IMG/VR virus record: IMGVR_UViG_3300028844_002785 | Span: 1 to 64,000 of that record | Direction: 5' to 3' (one strand) | Source of the DNA: a virus | Length of the DNA: 64,000 nt | Made by a program: the position numbers and the translations under genes | In this document: one piece after another, positions 56,018 through 62,614 of the stretch | Layout: each line of letters begins with the position of its first letter | How positions within the stretch are numbered: position 1 is the first letter of the stretch | Notes under the pieces: generated by a model | The model's database searches: none | The model's input: only the letters and a program-made list of their open reading frames with translations | Told to the model about the DNA's origin: nothing

Positions 56018-57112
56018 ATGAACTCTACTGACGTAATTGTTTCAGATCTAATCTCTCGATTTGGGTCAAGCGTTACTCGTAAAAATATTTCCGAATACAG
56101 TGAGACTAGTGATGCTTCCTTTGTAACCTTGTGTAATCGACTAAAGCCATACAAGGTTGGTCGTGGTTTGTATAATCTTACAGTTAAAGAAAAACTAGAA
56201 CAGAATTATTCAACTGATACTGGAGTTCCTTTTATTGAAATCCAAAATCTTGTTCCGGATAAAGATCCTACATATGTTCCTTTTGGAAATTTTTCTGATG
56301 TAAAGAAAATTATCAAGTCTGGTATTTTCTATCCAACGTTTATTACTGGTCTGTCTGGAAATGGTAAAACATTTAGTGTAGAACAAGCATGTGCTCAACT
56401 TGGACGAGAACTTGTTCGTGTAAACATTACTATTGAAACTGATGAAGATGATCTTATTGGTGGTTTCCGTCTTGTCGATGGGGCAACTGTTTGGCATAAC
56501 GGACCTGTCGTTGAAGCACTTGAACGAGGAGCAATCTTGTTACTCGATGAAGTTGACCTTGCTAGCAATAAAATCCTCTGTCTACAGTCCATCCTTGAAG
56601 GTAAAGGTGTGTTCCTGAAAAAAATTAACAAATATGTTAATGTAACAGATGGGTTTAATGTATTCGCAACAGCTAATACTAAAGGTAAGGGTTCTGATGA
56701 TGGAAGATTTATTGGTACTAATGTGCTAAATGAAGCATTCCTTGAAAGATTTGCGGTAACGTTTGAACAGTGTTATCCTAATCCTACAACAGAACAAAAA
56801 ATTCTTGATGGTGTTTCATCAACTCTAGATATGCAAGAGTCGTTAGATACGACATTCTGTAAAAATCTGGTGGACTGGGCAGAAATTATTCGTAAAACAT
56901 TTGCCGAAGGTGGTATCGACGAAGTTATTTCAACTCGTCGTTTAGTTCACATTATTCGTGCATACAGTATCTTTGGTAATGAATCTAAAGCCCTTAGTGT
57001 TTGTTTGAATAGATTTGACAATGACACCAAACAATCTTTCCTAGATTTGTTTGATAAACTAGTTGCACCTAAGGAAGAAACTTTTGATGATCAAGACTTG
57101 ACAACACTGTAA
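56018..57112 (+). CDS. cobS: CobS-like MoxR-type AAA+ ATPase, 364 aa
   Basis: The ATG is chosen because the only longer frame starts at a TTG inside the promoter. Walker A GLSGNGKT (111-118), Walker B LLLDEVD (D177, E178), sensor-1-like FATANTKGKG and arginine-finger region NEAFLERF all fit MoxR/CobS ATPases. The VDGATVWHNGPVVEALERGA loop (pre-sensor insert) is typical. An N-terminal 80-residue domain with LISRFGSSVTRKNI precedes the ATPase. CobS is widespread in T4-like cyanophages and is usually linked to cobalamin synthesis; here its partner is the VWA gene just upstream. It has a strong host-type promoter. Confidence 0.9.
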   Translation: MNSTDVIVSDLISRFGSSVTRKNISEYSETSDASFVTLCNRLKPYKVGRGLYNLTVKEKLEQNYSTDTGVPFIEIQNLVPDKDPTYVPFGNFSDVKKIIKSGIFYPTFITGLSGNGKTFSVEQACAQLGRELVRVNITIETDEDDLIGGFRLVDGATVWHNGPVVEALERGAILLLDEVDLASNKILCLQSILEGKGVFLKKINKYVNVTDGFNVFATANTKGKGSDDGRFIGTNVLNEAFLERFAVTFEQCYPNPTTEQKILDGVSSTLDMQESLDTTFCKNLVDWAEIIRKTFAEGGIDEVISTRRLVHIIRAYSIFGNESKALSVCLNRFDNDTKQSFLDLFDKLVAPKEETFDDQDLTTL

Positions 57113-57126
57113 ATAATTTGTATAAT
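57098..57126 (+). promoter_or_regulatory. Near-consensus sigma70 promoter of the DUF3310-45-44 operon
   Basis: TTGACA (57098-57103), 17 bp, TATAAT (57121-57126): both hexamers are perfect. The -35 lies inside the last codons of cobS. It should drive the sliding clamp and clamp loader genes early. Confidence 0.88.
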
Positions 57127-57454: not shown

Positions 57455-58120
57455 ATGAAAATTTCCATCGAAACTCTGAATATTCTCAAAAACTTTTCTA
57501 ACATCAACTCTTCGTTGGTTGTTAAAAAGGGAAATATTCTGCGAACTATTTCTCCTGCAAAAAATATTCTTGCAAAGTTTGAATGTCCAGAATCTTTCGA
57601 CAATGATTTTGCTGTATATGATCTAAATGAATTTCTGGGTGGTCTCTCTCTGTTTAAGGATCCTGACTTTGATTTTGGTAATACTTCTTATCTTTCTATT
57701 CGCAGTAATAAATCTAGAGTTAAATACTTTTTCTCCGATCCCAGTGTGATTACTGCTCCTCCAGAAAAAGATATTGAACTACCAACTATTGATGTTGAGT
57801 TTACTTTGACTGAAGAAGTTCTTTCGTCATTGATTCGTGCAGCAAGTGTGTATCAACTTCCCGATCTTTCCTTGGTTGGTGAGAATGGAAACATGAATCT
57901 TGTGGTTCGTACAAAGAACAATGATACATCTAACAATTTCTCCGTCAAGGTTGGTGAAACTGAGAATGAATTTTGTTTCAATTTCAAAGTAGAGAACCTA
58001 AAACTTATGCCTGGAGTGTATAATGTTCAGGTATCTACTGCTAATATTTCAAAGTTTACACATGATAAGTGGAACTTGTCCTATCTTATTGCTCTAGAAC
58101 CTGACTCTACTTTTAATTGA
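57455..58120 (+). CDS. 45: gp45-like sliding clamp, 221 aa
   Basis: The sequence has the PCNA-like clamp pattern of T4 gp45 (228 aa), with ISIETLNILKNFSNINSSLV, FAVYDLNEFLGGLSLF and a C-terminal PGVYNVQVSTANISKFTHD, WNLSYLIALEPDS. The trimeric ring tethers DNA polymerase gp43 and, in late transcription, contacts gp55. The gene precedes gp44 with two bases between stop and start. Confidence 0.95.
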   Translation: MKISIETLNILKNFSNINSSLVVKKGNILRTISPAKNILAKFECPESFDNDFAVYDLNEFLGGLSLFKDPDFDFGNTSYLSIRSNKSRVKYFFSDPSVITAPPEKDIELPTIDVEFTLTEEVLSSLIRAASVYQLPDLSLVGENGNMNLVVRTKNNDTSNNFSVKVGETENEFCFNFKVENLKLMPGVYNVQVSTANISKFTHDKWNLSYLIALEPDSTFN

Positions 58121-58122
58121 TA

Positions 58123-59064
58123 ATGAGTGATTTTATCTGGGTTGAAAAATACCGTCCTACTAAAATTGAAGACTGTATTCTCCCCGAAGGTATCAAAACT
58201 ACCTTACAAAGTTTTGTTAAAAAGGGGGAAGTTCCAAACCTTCTCCTTGCTGGTCCCCCTGGTATCGGCAAAACTACAGTTGCAAAAGCTCTTTGCAACG
58301 AACTTGGTGTTGACTTTTACGTAATTAATGGATCTGACGAAGGACGATTTCTGGACACGGTACGGAACCAAGCAAAGAATTTTGCGACGACCGTATCACT
58401 TCAAGCAAATGGAAAACCAAAAGTTATCATCATTGACGAAGCAGATAACACAACCAATGATGTACAACTCCTCTTACGGGCAAACATTGAGGCGTATCAT
58501 AACAACTGCAGATTCATCTTCACCTGCAACTACAAAAACAAAATCATCGAACCCCTCCACAGTCGATGTGCCGTCGTTGACTTCTCAGTCAACGGAAAGG
58601 AAAAGACAGCTATTGCGGGGCAATTTTTCAACCGTATCAGGTCTATACTTGAGAAAGAAACTGTTGATTATGATCCTAAAGTTGTCGCAGAAGTAATCAA
58701 AAAATATTTTCCTGATTGGAGACGTGTCTTAAATGAATTGCAAAGATATGCTTCTATTGGTAGTATTGACACAGGAATTCTAACTGCAGTTTCTGAAGTC
58801 AATCTGAAAGATCTTGTTGGTAATATGAAAAATAAAGACTTTAGTAAAGTTAGGAAGTGGGTTGTGGAAAACCTTGATAATGATCAAAGTGCAGTTCATC
58901 GTAAAGTATATGATACCATGTATACATCTTTGGAACCTGCATCTATTCCACAAGCTGTTTTAATTTTTGCTAAATATCAATATCAGTCTGCATTTGCTGT
59001 TGATCCAGAGATCAATACGCTTGCATGTATGACTGAACTAATGTGTGACTGTAAATTCAAATGA
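58123..59064 (+). CDS. 44: gp44-like clamp loader large subunit, 313 aa
   Basis: The ATG at 58123 is chosen (MSDFIWVEKYRP, the universal clamp-loader start) rather than a TTG two codons upstream. Walker A GPPGIGKT (44-51), DEAD box IIDEAD (D105 to D108) and SRC motif (S147-C149) are all present. gp44 forms a 4:1 complex with gp62 that opens gp45. T4 gp44 is 319 aa. It is joined by ATGA to an accessory gene rather than directly to gene 62. Confidence 0.96.
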   Translation: MSDFIWVEKYRPTKIEDCILPEGIKTTLQSFVKKGEVPNLLLAGPPGIGKTTVAKALCNELGVDFYVINGSDEGRFLDTVRNQAKNFATTVSLQANGKPKVIIIDEADNTTNDVQLLLRANIEAYHNNCRFIFTCNYKNKIIEPLHSRCAVVDFSVNGKEKTAIAGQFFNRIRSILEKETVDYDPKVVAEVIKKYFPDWRRVLNELQRYASIGSIDTGILTAVSEVNLKDLVGNMKNKDFSKVRKWVVENLDNDQSAVHRKVYDTMYTSLEPASIPQAVLIFAKYQYQSAFAVDPEINTLACMTELMCDCKFK

Positions 59065-59351
59065 ATGTAAAACTTATTCGTATGTCTTCTGGTGAAGACG
59101 TTGTTGCTACTATCGTCAGTGAAACTGATAGTATACTTGAAGTAGAAGATGCTATTGTAGCAATTCCTACTGGTGAGAGCCAAATTGGATTTGCTCCATG
59201 GTCTCCTCTTGTATCAAAATCGGACAAAACTTTGCCCGTAAATAAAAAATTTGTGGTTTACATTGCAGAGGTTGCAGAAGACATCGTAAACCAGTATAAT
59301 CAGATGTTCAGTAAAATTGTAACTCCAACTAATAAACTGATATATAAATGA
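59061..59351 (+). CDS. Sm-like (LSm-fold) protein, copy 2, 96 aa
   Basis: It overlaps gp44 by ATGA. The sequence VKLIRMSSGEDVVATIVSE, DAIVAIPTGESQIGFAPWSP matches copy 1 at 49285 along its length: the same SGE-(D/E) turn after strand 1, P-x-G-E and APW/RPW, and a hydrophobic final strand (FVVYIAEVAEDIVNQYN). This size is that of an Sm-fold unit (about 75-100 aa). In cellular organisms Sm/Hfq rings bind RNA; in this operon with RegA and replication genes an RNA-regulating function is attractive but inferred. Confidence 0.65.
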   Translation: MNVKLIRMSSGEDVVATIVSETDSILEVEDAIVAIPTGESQIGFAPWSPLVSKSDKTLPVNKKFVVYIAEVAEDIVNQYNQMFSKIVTPTNKLIYK

Positions 59352-60460
59352 TTCTTTCTCCAGAAGATACTCTATACGCATACGGTAAGATCAATGAAGC
59401 ATACGGTTCTATCAACCGTATTGATGACTTCTTTCGTATGAAAAAAATTGAACGTATCAAAGAGATTCCACCAACTCTCTTTGGTTTGTCCCATGAAGAT
59501 GATCTGTTTCAGGATTTCTCTATGCATCCTGAGGACATGAACTTTCGTATTGTTCAACCAGACCACAGCACGTTCAATACTCTTCTGGAAATGACTGCAT
59601 CATTTACCTACGAGGAAGCACCAGGTAAAGAGATGAAACTGATGATCCAGGAGACCACCACAGGCACCGCTGTAGGGTTCATCAAACTGGGTTCTCCCAT
59701 CATCAACTCCAAACCTCGTAACGAGTGGTTGGGAGGGGTTCCTGACCTGACCATCTTCAACAAACGTGCGATCATGGGATTTATCATCGTTCCTACTCAA
59801 CCGTTTGGATTCAACTATCTTGGTGGTAAACTTCTGTCATTGATCTGTTGTAGTCATGAAGTTCGTGAGATGTTGAATAAGAAGTACAATACAGAAATGT
59901 GTTTGTTTGAGACAACATCGTTGTATGGTAATATCAAAGGTACCAGTCAGTATGATGGTCTAAAGCCATACCTTCGTTATCGTGGAGATACAGAATCTAA
60001 GTTTCTGTTGACTCTCCCAGACTTCATCTATCATGATCTGAGTAAGTGGTTTATTGAAAGGAATGGTGGTCCTTTAATTCATAAAGGTGCTTCTAGTCGC
60101 AAACTCAAAATTCAAACCAAGATGATTTCTATCATCAAAAATTCTCTGAAGGAATACTATCCAGATCTGTATACAGAGTTTGTTGCATTCATTAAATCTA
60201 AACAGGATGTGACAACTCAGAAACGTTTTTATATGTCTGACTATGGATATGAAAACGCTAAAGATGTTATACTTGGTAAAACTGAAACACTAATTCCAAA
60301 CAAACAAAACTTCGATAAATTTTATCTAGAAAATATGGTACAATGGTGGAAACGAAAAGCTTCTAATCGTTACCAAAAACTTGTTAGTGAAAATTATCTG
60401 AGAACAGATATTGAAGTTTGGAATTCTAATACTATGAACACTATTGACATTATCAGATGA
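59348..60460 (+). CDS. DruA/DUF4338-like protein, 370 aa
   Basis: The central region (GTAVGFIKLGSPIINSK, RNEWLGGVPDLTIFN, IMGFIIVPTQPFGFNYLGGK, LCCSH-type helix, MCLFETTSLYG and KPYLRYRGDTES) follows the order seen in DUF4338/DruA proteins of the Druantia defence system: G-x-I-x-L-x-S-P, R-x-x-W-(I/L)-G, an (I/L)-I-(L/V)-P strand, a (L)-x-(S/G)-x-L-L helix, then L-x-E-T-x-(V/S). An N-terminal 90-residue helical domain and a C-terminal 100-residue basic region flank it. The gene is joined by ATGA to both neighbours. The phage role is unknown; it could be nucleic-acid-directed. Confidence 0.55.
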   Translation: MILSPEDTLYAYGKINEAYGSINRIDDFFRMKKIERIKEIPPTLFGLSHEDDLFQDFSMHPEDMNFRIVQPDHSTFNTLLEMTASFTYEEAPGKEMKLMIQETTTGTAVGFIKLGSPIINSKPRNEWLGGVPDLTIFNKRAIMGFIIVPTQPFGFNYLGGKLLSLICCSHEVREMLNKKYNTEMCLFETTSLYGNIKGTSQYDGLKPYLRYRGDTESKFLLTLPDFIYHDLSKWFIERNGGPLIHKGASSRKLKIQTKMISIIKNSLKEYYPDLYTEFVAFIKSKQDVTTQKRFYMSDYGYENAKDVILGKTETLIPNKQNFDKFYLENMVQWWKRKASNRYQKLVSENYLRTDIEVWNSNTMNTIDIIR

Positions 60461-61800
60461 CGCTTACCAAATTCTTAACTGACCAAAAATTTGAAAAGAC
60501 TATACGAATTTTAGTCTATCCAAACATTACGTTCTCTAAGGATTTGACAAAGGATAGTTATATTCAAGTGATTACAAATATGATCACTGAGCTTAATAAG
60601 ATTCGTACTGATTTATTTTTCTATTTAATTCTCCCATCTTTCTTGGAGATGTTGGACTTTCCTAATACCAGTCAACTTATTATGAAAGTTCCTACGTATC
60701 CTCCTACGATGCGTTCTCATTTTGATGTAGATTTTTTCAGAAGACTTATCAATCATGATCTTGATATTGATTTAGTATTCTCTCATCTTCCAGAACATAC
60801 ACATGCTATTAAAAATACTATCAGTAATGTAACTCATCATAGCCCTTCTTACTTTGGATATTGTCACTGGTTTGATCTCAAAGAAGTTGTTGCATGGAGT
60901 CAACCAAGTTTCAATCAAAATATTCTTGGACTACTTGAGATGGAACGTTGCTATCTCAATACACAGAGTCAAAAAAATCTTGTATTAAAGCAATCGACCG
61001 AAACCTTTAATAAGGGAACCCTTATTAAACTTAAGGACATTCTTACACCACATCATCTAGGAGTTAAAGAATCTGATATTGTAGAACCAAATACAAATAC
61101 CGATAAATTAATTGTTTTTAATCACAGACCTGATACATATAAAGACTTCAATAACTTTATGAAGGTTCTAGAGTCTCTCAGAGAGGTTAGAGAAGACTTT
61201 ACTGTGTGGATACCATTGTTAGAAAAATCAGATAAGGATTGGATTACTACTGAGAAGTTTAATAAGCAACGTTATTACAAAAAACTTCAACAATGTAGAG
61301 TTGGATTTTCTCCAAAACAAGTTTATGGTGGATGGAGTGTTTCAACTACAGATGGTATTATGAATGGTTGTCCATATATTATGTACGACGCTGATTACTA
61401 TCAAGAACTAAATCCAACTGCAGATTTCTTTACTGAAAATTCTACCGCTGTAAATCTTTTGAATAAGTATCTAGATGATCCTGGATATCGAAATGAGATG
61501 TCTGTCAAATCTCAATCTTATTTACGTGAAAATCTTATCTATACTGCTGAAATTAAAAACATAAGTGATTACATAGATGATCTTATTGATAGACAAAAAT
61601 GTATTCAGTCTGATGTGACAACCAGATTAATTGATATAATTAAATCGAAGGGACAAGTTACTAAAAAAGAATTATTTAATTCCTACCTTGGTTGGGGTAG
61701 AGGAATTAAGTTTGGTCCTTACCGGAGAGCTTTGCTCAATCATGAAAATATCTATGATACAATAGATTCCACTCCTTATTATTGCTGGATTGACACTTAA
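60457..61800 (+). CDS. GT-B-like glycosyltransferase candidate with C-terminal helical domain, 447 aa
   Basis: The first part is an alpha/beta domain (IRILVYPNITFSKDLT, DLFFYLILPSFLEML, DIDLVFSHLPEHTHAI). From residue 220 a second Rossmann-like half begins with KLIVFNHRPDTYKDFNNF, and it holds LQQCRVGFSPKQVYGGWSVS and TDGIMNGCPYIMYDADYYQE, arranged like the donor-binding end of GT4-type enzymes. Residues 380-447 (IIKSKGQVTKKELFNSYLGW, RRALLNHENIYDT) resemble a winged-helix domain. It follows the DruA-like gene by ATGA, 3 bases before gene 62. DNA base glucosylation is possible, by analogy with T4 alpha-gt, but the donor and acceptor are unknown. Confidence 0.55.
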   Translation: MTLTKFLTDQKFEKTIRILVYPNITFSKDLTKDSYIQVITNMITELNKIRTDLFFYLILPSFLEMLDFPNTSQLIMKVPTYPPTMRSHFDVDFFRRLINHDLDIDLVFSHLPEHTHAIKNTISNVTHHSPSYFGYCHWFDLKEVVAWSQPSFNQNILGLLEMERCYLNTQSQKNLVLKQSTETFNKGTLIKLKDILTPHHLGVKESDIVEPNTNTDKLIVFNHRPDTYKDFNNFMKVLESLREVREDFTVWIPLLEKSDKDWITTEKFNKQRYYKKLQQCRVGFSPKQVYGGWSVSTTDGIMNGCPYIMYDADYYQELNPTADFFTENSTAVNLLNKYLDDPGYRNEMSVKSQSYLRENLIYTAEIKNISDYIDDLIDRQKCIQSDVTTRLIDIIKSKGQVTKKELFNSYLGWGRGIKFGPYRRALLNHENIYDTIDSTPYYCWIDT

Positions 61801-61803
61801 ATT

Positions 61804-62187
61804 ATGGAACTTAAAGACTGGTTGAACTCTATTAATCAATCAAAAATTAACTTGATTGATGAAGACTATGGTACAGAAAAAGATTATCCCCCATTCATTA
61901 TCAATAAGTGTATGTCTGGTTTTATAGACACAGTTCTTATCGCTAATGAAATGAATATTCATTCTGATCTTTCAAAGAAGATGCAATATGATTTTTTTAT
62001 AAATATTGTGAGACCGAAAAAAAGATTTTCTCCATGGTTGAGAAAAGAAAAACTTGACACCCTAGAACTCATCAAAAATTATTATCATTATAATGATGAG
62101 AAAGCCAGAAGTGCTCTGAGACTTTTATCGGAAGAACAAATTGAATTTATCAAACAAAGGATGAAAACTGGAGGAAAAAATGAGTGA
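61804..62187 (+). CDS. 62: gp62-like clamp loader small subunit, 127 aa
   Basis: The middle segment (SKKMQYDFFINIVRPKKRFS, then PWLRKEKLDTLELIKNYYHY) matches cyanophage gp62, including the KMQYDF-x-I-x-x-x-R-P-(K/R)-K-R-F core. T4 gp62 is 187 aa, so cyanophage versions are short. It completes the gp44/62 loader. Its distance from gene 44 (three genes apart) is unlike T4, where 44 and 62 adjoin. The end overlaps regA by 8 bp. Confidence 0.88.
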   Translation: MELKDWLNSINQSKINLIDEDYGTEKDYPPFIINKCMSGFIDTVLIANEMNIHSDLSKKMQYDFFINIVRPKKRFSPWLRKEKLDTLELIKNYYHYNDEKARSALRLLSEEQIEFIKQRMKTGGKNE

Positions 62188-62614
62188 AGTTCTGGAGTAC
62201 AATTGGTCGCCTGATAAAATGGTTGAGGTGACACTCAAGGAGCCTGATGATTTTCTGAAGGTTCGCGAGACTCTTACTCGTATCGGTGTTGCATCACGTA
62301 AAGAAAAAAAGATTTATCAGTCTTGTCATATTTTGCATAAACAAGGTAAGTATTATATCGTTCACTTCAAAGAGTTGTTTGCTCTTGATGGTAAAAAAGC
62401 AAATCTTTTTGTAAATGATATTCAACGTAGAAATCGTATTGCTCAGTTGTTATCTGACTGGGGGTTGGTTGATGTAGTAGAATCTTCTATGGTTGAAGAT
62501 TGTGCTCCTCTAAGTCAAATTAAAGTTCTTTCTTATAGAGATAAAGGTGAGTGGACTTTAGAAAGTAAGTATAATATTGGTAAAAAGAAAACAACTACTA
62601 CTCAGTCAGTATAA
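62180..62614 (+). CDS. regA: RegA-like translational repressor, 144 aa
   Basis: The sequence has MVEVTLKEPDDFLKVRETLT-type start after a short N-terminal extension, YQSCHILHKQGKYYIVHFKE and NRIAQLLSDWGLVDVVES, all diagnostic of RegA (T4: 122 aa). RegA binds ribosome sites of early mRNAs such as 44, 45 and regA itself. The gene closes the 45-44-62 operon; its 3' end overlaps the convergent minus-strand gene at 62602 by 13 bp. Confidence 0.95.
   Translation: MSEVLEYNWSPDKMVEVTLKEPDDFLKVRETLTRIGVASRKEKKIYQSCHILHKQGKYYIVHFKELFALDGKKANLFVNDIQRRNRIAQLLSDWGLVDVVESSMVEDCAPLSQIKVLSYRDKGEWTLESKYNIGKKKTTTTQSV

What the first reader, a model, noticed from the sequence alone, without database searches (positions are those of the whole stretch)
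59348..60460. DruA/DUF4338-like protein in a phage clamp-loader operon
The gene between 44 and 62 encodes a protein whose central motifs follow the order of the DUF4338 family, known from DruA of the bacterial Druantia anti-phage system. A phage carrying such a domain in its core replication operon, coupled by ATGA on both sides, is unexpected. It may be an ancient replication or DNA-handling function that Druantia borrowed, a decoy, or an inter-phage exclusion factor.
Basis: partly seen in the sequence, partly recalled or inferred. Interest (0 to 1): 0.75.

Follow-up and report, generated by a model that had tools for sequence, protein, structure and literature searches.

The report
DruA-type GNAT-fold enzyme in marine phage
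A marine T4-like phage carries, inside its DNA-replication operon, a relative of the bacterial anti-phage protein DruA; the protein looks like an intact acyl-transfer (GNAT-fold) enzyme and in many related viruses is directly coupled to a sugar-transferring enzyme, which suggests that it chemically decorates DNA or another molecule rather than running a Druantia defence system.

Summary
ORF 59348-60460 (370 aa) matches PF14236 (DruA/DUF4338), E=1.4e-10, above the curated cut-off; all 45 family members tested match, and profile comparison with genuine Druantia type I DruA gives E=2e-11. It is ATGA-coupled on both sides, but is not next to gene 62: the order is 45-44-orf96-DruA-like-glycosyltransferase-62-regA. 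DruA-like proteins in Synechococcus phages were already reported (Phold, NAR January 2026), so presence alone is not new. Added here: (1) a confident model whose listed PDB matches are GNAT acyltransferases, with DUF4338-wide residues retained; (2) carrier phages lack DruB-E, so this is not a Druantia system; (3) it is accessory (31 of 514 gp44-bearing phage records), under strong purifying selection, and a clade separate from Druantia DruA; (4) in metagenomic viruses it is usually coupled to a GT4-type glycosyltransferase with a C-terminal winged-helix-like domain, or to a second glycosyltransferase-like family, in several genome positions; gene 44-62 intervals without it held neither (0/49, against 7/9 with it). 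Best reading: a GNAT-fold enzyme of an accessory nucleic-acid (most likely DNA) modification cassette. Substrate and reaction are inferred, not shown.

The parts
59348..60460 (+). DruA-like (DUF4338) gene, 370 aa, GNAT fold predicted; the subject of the finding
   Evidence: PF14236 E=1.4e-10; hhalign to Druantia DruA E=2e-11; AlphaFold2 pLDDT 87; listed PDB matches are GNAT/acetyltransferases
59543..59992 (+). Predicted GNAT core, residues 66-215, with the residues shared across DUF4338 (G93, G110, R124, GGKL159-162, TTS189-191, G194, S200, Y202, G213, T215)
   Evidence: Secondary structure of the model; cross-family alignment of 21 proteins
60068..60457 (+). C-terminal helical part, residues 241-370, net charge +8
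   Evidence: Model secondary structure; charge count
60457..61800 (+). GT447: GT-B/GT4-type glycosyltransferase with C-terminal winged-helix-like domain (residues about 386-447), ATGA-coupled to the DruA-like gene
   Evidence: AlphaFold2 pLDDT 87.5; Foldseek PDB best E=1.3e-12, GT4 enzymes; Glycos_transf_1 weak hits in 12/16 members
59061..59351 (+). orf96, small protein of phrog_527 (unknown), between gp44 and the DruA-like gene
58123..59064 (+). gp44 clamp-loader large subunit
   Evidence: AAA and Gp44_lid; phrog_168
61804..62187 (+). gp62 clamp-loader small subunit
   Evidence: Phage_clamp_A E=2.8e-13; phrog_225
62180..62614 (+). RegA translational repressor
   Evidence: Translat_reg E=1.2e-44
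57455..58120 (+). gp45 sliding clamp
   Evidence: gp45-slide_C; phrog_223
57098..57126 (+). Promoter-like site TTGACA-17-TATAAT (12 of 12) upstream of the operon; consensus match only

Best explanation
The gene encodes a full-length member of the DUF4338/DruA family, which has the GNAT (acyl-CoA-dependent acyltransferase) fold and is probably a distant relative of the phage Mu DNA-modifying enzyme Mom. It looks catalytically intact and forms an accessory cassette with a co-translated GT4-type glycosyltransferase that has a C-terminal winged-helix-like domain. The cassette sits in replication and recombination operons of marine T4-like phages. The most likely job is chemical modification of phage DNA during replication: one enzyme adds a sugar, the GNAT enzyme adds an acyl-type group to the base or to the sugar, protecting the genome from host or rival nucleases. 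Shown by computation: homology, predicted fold, conserved residues, purifying selection, coupling and co-occurrence with glycosyltransferases, absence of Druantia partners. Inferred: that it is an active enzyme, that an acyl-CoA is the donor, that DNA is the substrate, that the two enzymes act in one pathway.
For: DruA homology. GNAT fold: model pLDDT 87, listed PDB matches all GNAT/acetyltransferase, best E=1.2e-3, probability 1.00, phage Mom among viral matches; a 2024 paper independently calls DUF4338 a GNAT domain (PMC10853773). IS-type DUF4338 bridges to Mom, E=4e-5. Low dN/dS. Of 152 distinct IMG/VR loci with the gene, 70 also hold GT447 and 24 GT330; where adjacent, 69 of 73 share a one-base stop-start overlap. 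44-62 intervals: 7/9 with a GT when the gene is present, 0/49 when absent. GT447 without the DruA-like gene lies beside a TAGT / HMC-glucosyltransferase-type protein and near a weak N6/N4-methylase-like one.
Against: No PDB match falls below E=0.001. Direct profile comparison with Mom is not significant. GT447 is absent from all isolate genomes searched, so the DruA-like protein can be kept without it. No TET/JBP gene above cut-off in carriers, so no known route to a hydroxylated base was found. No DNA modification has been measured in any carrier. The loci counted are related to each other.
Confidence: 0.42

Rival explanations
1. Glycan or virion modification: the glycosyltransferase builds a sugar on a host surface molecule, virion protein or small molecule and the GNAT enzyme acylates that sugar. 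DNA is not the substrate.
For: GT447 structural matches are small-molecule and glycan GT4 enzymes; a cytidylyltransferase of the heptose/glycerol type lies in the same neighbourhood in 18 viral loci with the gene (counted before removing duplicate contigs), as in sugar-nucleotide synthesis.
Against: Family relatives sit in DNA-targeting defence operons; the gene lies in replication and recombination operons in every context seen; GT447 has a winged-helix-like C-terminal domain.
Confidence: 0.2
2. The GNAT-fold protein acylates a protein (host RNA polymerase, the clamp or clamp loader, or another host target) to redirect transcription or replication, as phiKMV Rac is reported to do; the glycosyltransferase is a separate passenger.
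For: GNAT fold; phage GNATs that modify RNA polymerase are described (PMC7824862); co-expression with gp44/gp62.
Against: Specific coupling with two glycosyltransferase families is then unexplained; presence in only a minority of phages with the same replisome.
Confidence: 0.15
3. Stand-alone exclusion or anti-phage factor: the phage uses the DruA-like enzyme, with or without the glycosyltransferase, to act against competing phages or host mobile elements.
For: Homology to a defence-system protein; accessory distribution and cassette-like mobility.
Against: DruB-E and the MZB helicase are absent; the gene is embedded in an essential early operon, not in an accessory island.
Confidence: 0.12
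4. Decoy: a DruA mimic that titrates Druantia components of the host.
For: Resemblance to DruA (PMC12774648).
Against: DUF4338-wide residues are kept, not degraded; deep separate clade rather than a recent mimic.
Confidence: 0.04

Closest known systems
DruA of Druantia type I (PF14236, DUF4338)
   Same: Homologous over most of the length; same conserved residues and order.
   Different: No DruB-E partners; separate deep clade; coupled to a glycosyltransferase in many viruses.
DruA-like proteins of Synechococcus phages reported by Phold (PMC12774648, S-PRM1)
   Same: Same family: S-PRM1 is one of the 31 isolate records found here, 49% identical.
   Different: That report gives structural similarity only; it does not describe the GNAT fold, operon position or glycosyltransferase cassette in the passages read.
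Mom of phage Mu (GNAT-fold DNA adenine modification enzyme)
   Same: GNAT fold; viral Foldseek match to a phage Mom; IS-type DUF4338 matches Mom at E=4e-5. One deposited genome even annotates this protein 'methylcarbamoylase mom'.
   Different: No significant direct sequence-profile match; the conserved residues differ from those of the Mom alignment.
GT4/GT-B glycosyltransferases (neighbour GT447)
   Same: GT-B fold, best match E=1.3e-12.
   Different: Extra C-terminal winged-helix-like domain; no Pfam match for the window copy.
Pelagiphage DUF4338 paralogs (Mosig_00022, HTVC008M AGE60440)
   Same: Sister clade in the tree; same PHROG.
   Different: Fixed position after 46/47 and a deformylase; GT447/GT330 not within 6 kb in 80 close relatives, though GT330 is near in HTVC008M.

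Membership tests
Pfam PF14236 (DruA/DUF4338) | Score above the curated cut-off | tested here: met
   41.3 bits against 27
Pfam PF14236 (DruA/DUF4338) | Conserved residues of the family core | tested here: met
   G93, G110, R124, LGGKL158-162, TTS189-191, G194, S200, Y202, G213, T215 shared with DruA groups
Druantia type I defence system | DruE helicase (DUF1998/MZB) encoded with DruA | tested here: not met
   No MZB match in the window's record or 11 isolate genomes; the window's record is a fragment
Druantia type I defence system | DruB, DruC, DruD | tested here: not met
   No BLAST match among ORFs of the fetched viral loci; more distant relatives not excluded
Druantia type I defence system | Anti-phage activity | not testable with these tools
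   Needs plaque assays
GNAT superfamily | GNAT fold | tested here: met
   Foldseek PDB, listed matches all GNAT/acetyltransferase, probability up to 1.00, best E=1.2e-3 on a predicted model
GNAT superfamily | Acyl-CoA pyrophosphate-binding loop between strand 4 and helix 3 | tested here: inconclusive
   Invariant N156 and GGK159-161 lie at that place in the model, but the canonical Q/RxxGxG/A is not exact
GNAT superfamily | Acyltransferase activity | not testable with these tools
   Needs biochemistry
Mom family | Significant profile match to Mom | tested here: not met
   E=0.07 direct; only indirect link through IS-type DUF4338
Mom family | Adenine modification of DNA | not testable with these tools
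   Needs mass spectrometry
GT4/GT-B glycosyltransferase (neighbour 60457-61800) | GT-B fold | tested here: met
   272 PDB matches at E<=0.001, top ones GT4/GT-B enzymes

The most novel reading that the evidence does not exclude
A new two-enzyme phage DNA hypermodification pathway (glycosyl transfer plus GNAT acyl transfer) that plugs into T4-like replication operons as a mobile cassette, and from which the unknown biochemical function of DruA in Druantia type I (acyl chemistry on DNA) can be deduced.
Probability: 0.25. Interest if true: 0.82.

Novelty: new variant of a known kind. Interest (0 to 1): 0.52.

Why it matters
I found no held paper that gives DruA a biochemical function; the recent Druantia mechanism papers read here concern type III, which lacks DruA. 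A phage relative that looks like an intact GNAT-fold enzyme and travels with a glycosyltransferase gives a concrete, testable reaction class for the whole DUF4338 family, in defence systems, other bacterial DUF4338 proteins and phages. It also points to possible unrecognised DNA modification in abundant ocean phages.

Tried and rejected
Sequence searches of the PDB (phmmer and profile) gave nothing useful. NCBIfam gave no hit. Direct Mom profile comparison was not significant. GT447 against GT330: not detectably related. TET/JBP search for a hydroxymethyl-base pathway: negative above cut-off. Considered and set aside: a Druantia system in the phage (partners absent); a decoy (residues kept); a core replication gene (patchy distribution). 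The first GT447 counts included contigs fetched twice; the non-redundant counts are those. The published residue roles of Mom could not be checked, as that paper is not held, so I did not use them as evidence.

Full report
Observation. The ORF at 59348-60460 (+) is 370 aa with an ATG start, and ATGA overlaps join it to orf96 and to the next gene. Pfam PF14236 (DruA, DUF4338) matches at E=1.4e-10, above its cut-off; two PADLOC DruA models match weakly; PHROG places it in phrog_19197, function unknown. All 45 diverse members of its family match PF14236. The gene order is DUF3310-45-44-orf96-DruA-like-GT447-62-regA, behind a perfect sigma-70 promoter-like match at 57098 (the scan as a whole finds no more sites than shuffles).

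Distribution. Thirty-one isolate records carry it, 25 named for Synechococcus and 3 for Pelagibacter. 514 phage records have a gp44 relative at E<=1e-60, so it is an accessory gene. Positions differ: 44-62 in most isolates read, between 43 and uvsX in HTVC008M, near 46/47 in S-B68.

Relation to DruA. Plasmid and genome DruA proteins of about 410 aa are homologous; hhalign gives P=97%, E=2e-11 over 179 columns. In 62 of 80 retrieved bacterial loci a DruE-type helicase match lies nearby, so these are mostly genuine Druantia operons. Residues shared across DUF4338 groups include G93, G110, R124, L158-GGKL, T189-TS, G194, S200, Y202, G213 and T215. The maximum-likelihood tree separates the phage clade (100/100), sister to a pelagiphage paralog clade (99/94), from short DruA, long DruA and IS-type groups; long branches make the deep order unsure. 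The root, and so the direction of transfer, cannot be told. The phages carrying it lack the DruE-type MZB domain, and DruB-E have no match in the fetched viral loci.

Fold. AlphaFold2 from 45 sequences gave mean pLDDT 87. The 50 PDB matches listed are GNAT or acetyltransferase structures, best E=1.2e-3, probability 1.00, none below E=0.001. The viral library gave long matches in giant viruses and a match to a phage Mom at E=9e-3. A 2024 paper independently calls DUF4338 a GNAT domain (PMC10853773). Direct comparison with a 5-sequence Mom profile failed, but IS-type DUF4338 matches both Mom (E=4e-5, P=70%) and this family (E=2e-8). I therefore claim the GNAT fold, and only a distant, indirect link to Mom.

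Selection. Pairwise dN/dS against close relatives is about 0.03-0.08 for the gene, and about 0.08-0.16 for its neighbour GT447. Both are maintained, functional proteins.

The glycosyltransferase link. The neighbour GT447 has no match in isolate phages but 63 loci in IMG/VR. Its model (pLDDT 87.5) matches GT4 enzymes (best E=1.3e-12) and a phage HY126 glycosyltransferase. Of 152 distinct IMG/VR loci with the DruA-like gene, 70 also hold GT447, 24 hold GT330 and 58 neither (some are too short to tell); where the two are neighbours, 58 of 60 (GT447) and 11 of 13 (GT330) share a one-base stop-start overlap. Of 44 GT447 contigs with at least 1 kb upstream, 38 have the DruA-like gene. GT330 I treat as glycosyltransferase-like only: its HTVC008M relative hits the PHROG beta-glucosyltransferase family weakly, and Pfam and PDB searches gave nothing. 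Each family occurs in more than one genome context. In 44-62 intervals recovered by a gp44 search, 7 of 9 with the DruA-like gene had one of these and 0 of 49 without did (Fisher p=1.2e-7, not corrected for relatedness or for the fact that the two families were chosen as neighbours of this gene). GT447 without a DruA-like gene sits next to a TAGT / HMC-alpha-glucosyltransferase-type protein, with weak PLP-like and N6/N4-methylase-like matches and an HNH protein in the same cluster, which hints at DNA modification. Against this, isolates keep the DruA-like gene without GT447, no TAGT was found in the isolates or in the window's record, and no TET/JBP gene above cut-off.

Interpretation. Established by computation: homology to DruA, GNAT fold by model, maintained sequence, accessory location in replication operons, frequent coupling with a glycosyltransferase. 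Inferred: enzymatic activity, acyl-CoA use, DNA as substrate. Phold's authors already reported the DruA resemblance in six Synechococcus phages (PMC12774648), so the observation itself is known; fold class, operon survey and cassette are what I add. I rate DNA modification the likeliest reading at 0.42, with glycan, protein and exclusion functions as live rivals.

Noticed in passing
L304, L296, L306 (around GT447): A second virus group carries GT447 without the DruA-like gene, in a cluster with a PLP-enzyme-like protein, an N6/N4-methylase-like protein, a TAGT / HMC-glucosyltransferase-type protein and an HNH protein: a possible DNA-modification cluster.
   Followed up: partly
L082:5602-6900, L170:5974-7116, L419-L498: A second phage DUF4338 clade in pelagiphages has a stable place after 46/47 and a peptide deformylase and matches PF14236 better than the window protein; HTVC008M carries both clades.
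   Followed up: partly
Foldseek viral hits A0A3G4ZXG3, A0A5K0UAJ3, A0A3G4ZRA1: Giant-virus proteins (Faunusvirus, Yasminevirus, Dasosvirus) match the model over its length, 16-21% identical, E down to 1e-15.
   Followed up: no
L154:7294-7794, L122, L104 and others: A cytidylyltransferase-like gene (PF01467; heptose-phosphate adenylyltransferase PHROG) recurs near the DruA-like gene and the glycosyltransferases, and near the pelagiphage paralog in 27 of 80 contigs.
   Followed up: partly
L393, L394, L415: Short bacterial DUF4338 proteins of about 320 aa form a separate group that bridges DruA and Mom by profile comparison.
   Followed up: partly
L083:5001-6122: The S-SCSM2R genome annotates its copy 'methylcarbamoylase mom', and S-CREM1 annotates its copy 'iron-binding protein'; neither name is supported by a direct sequence match here.
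   Followed up: partly
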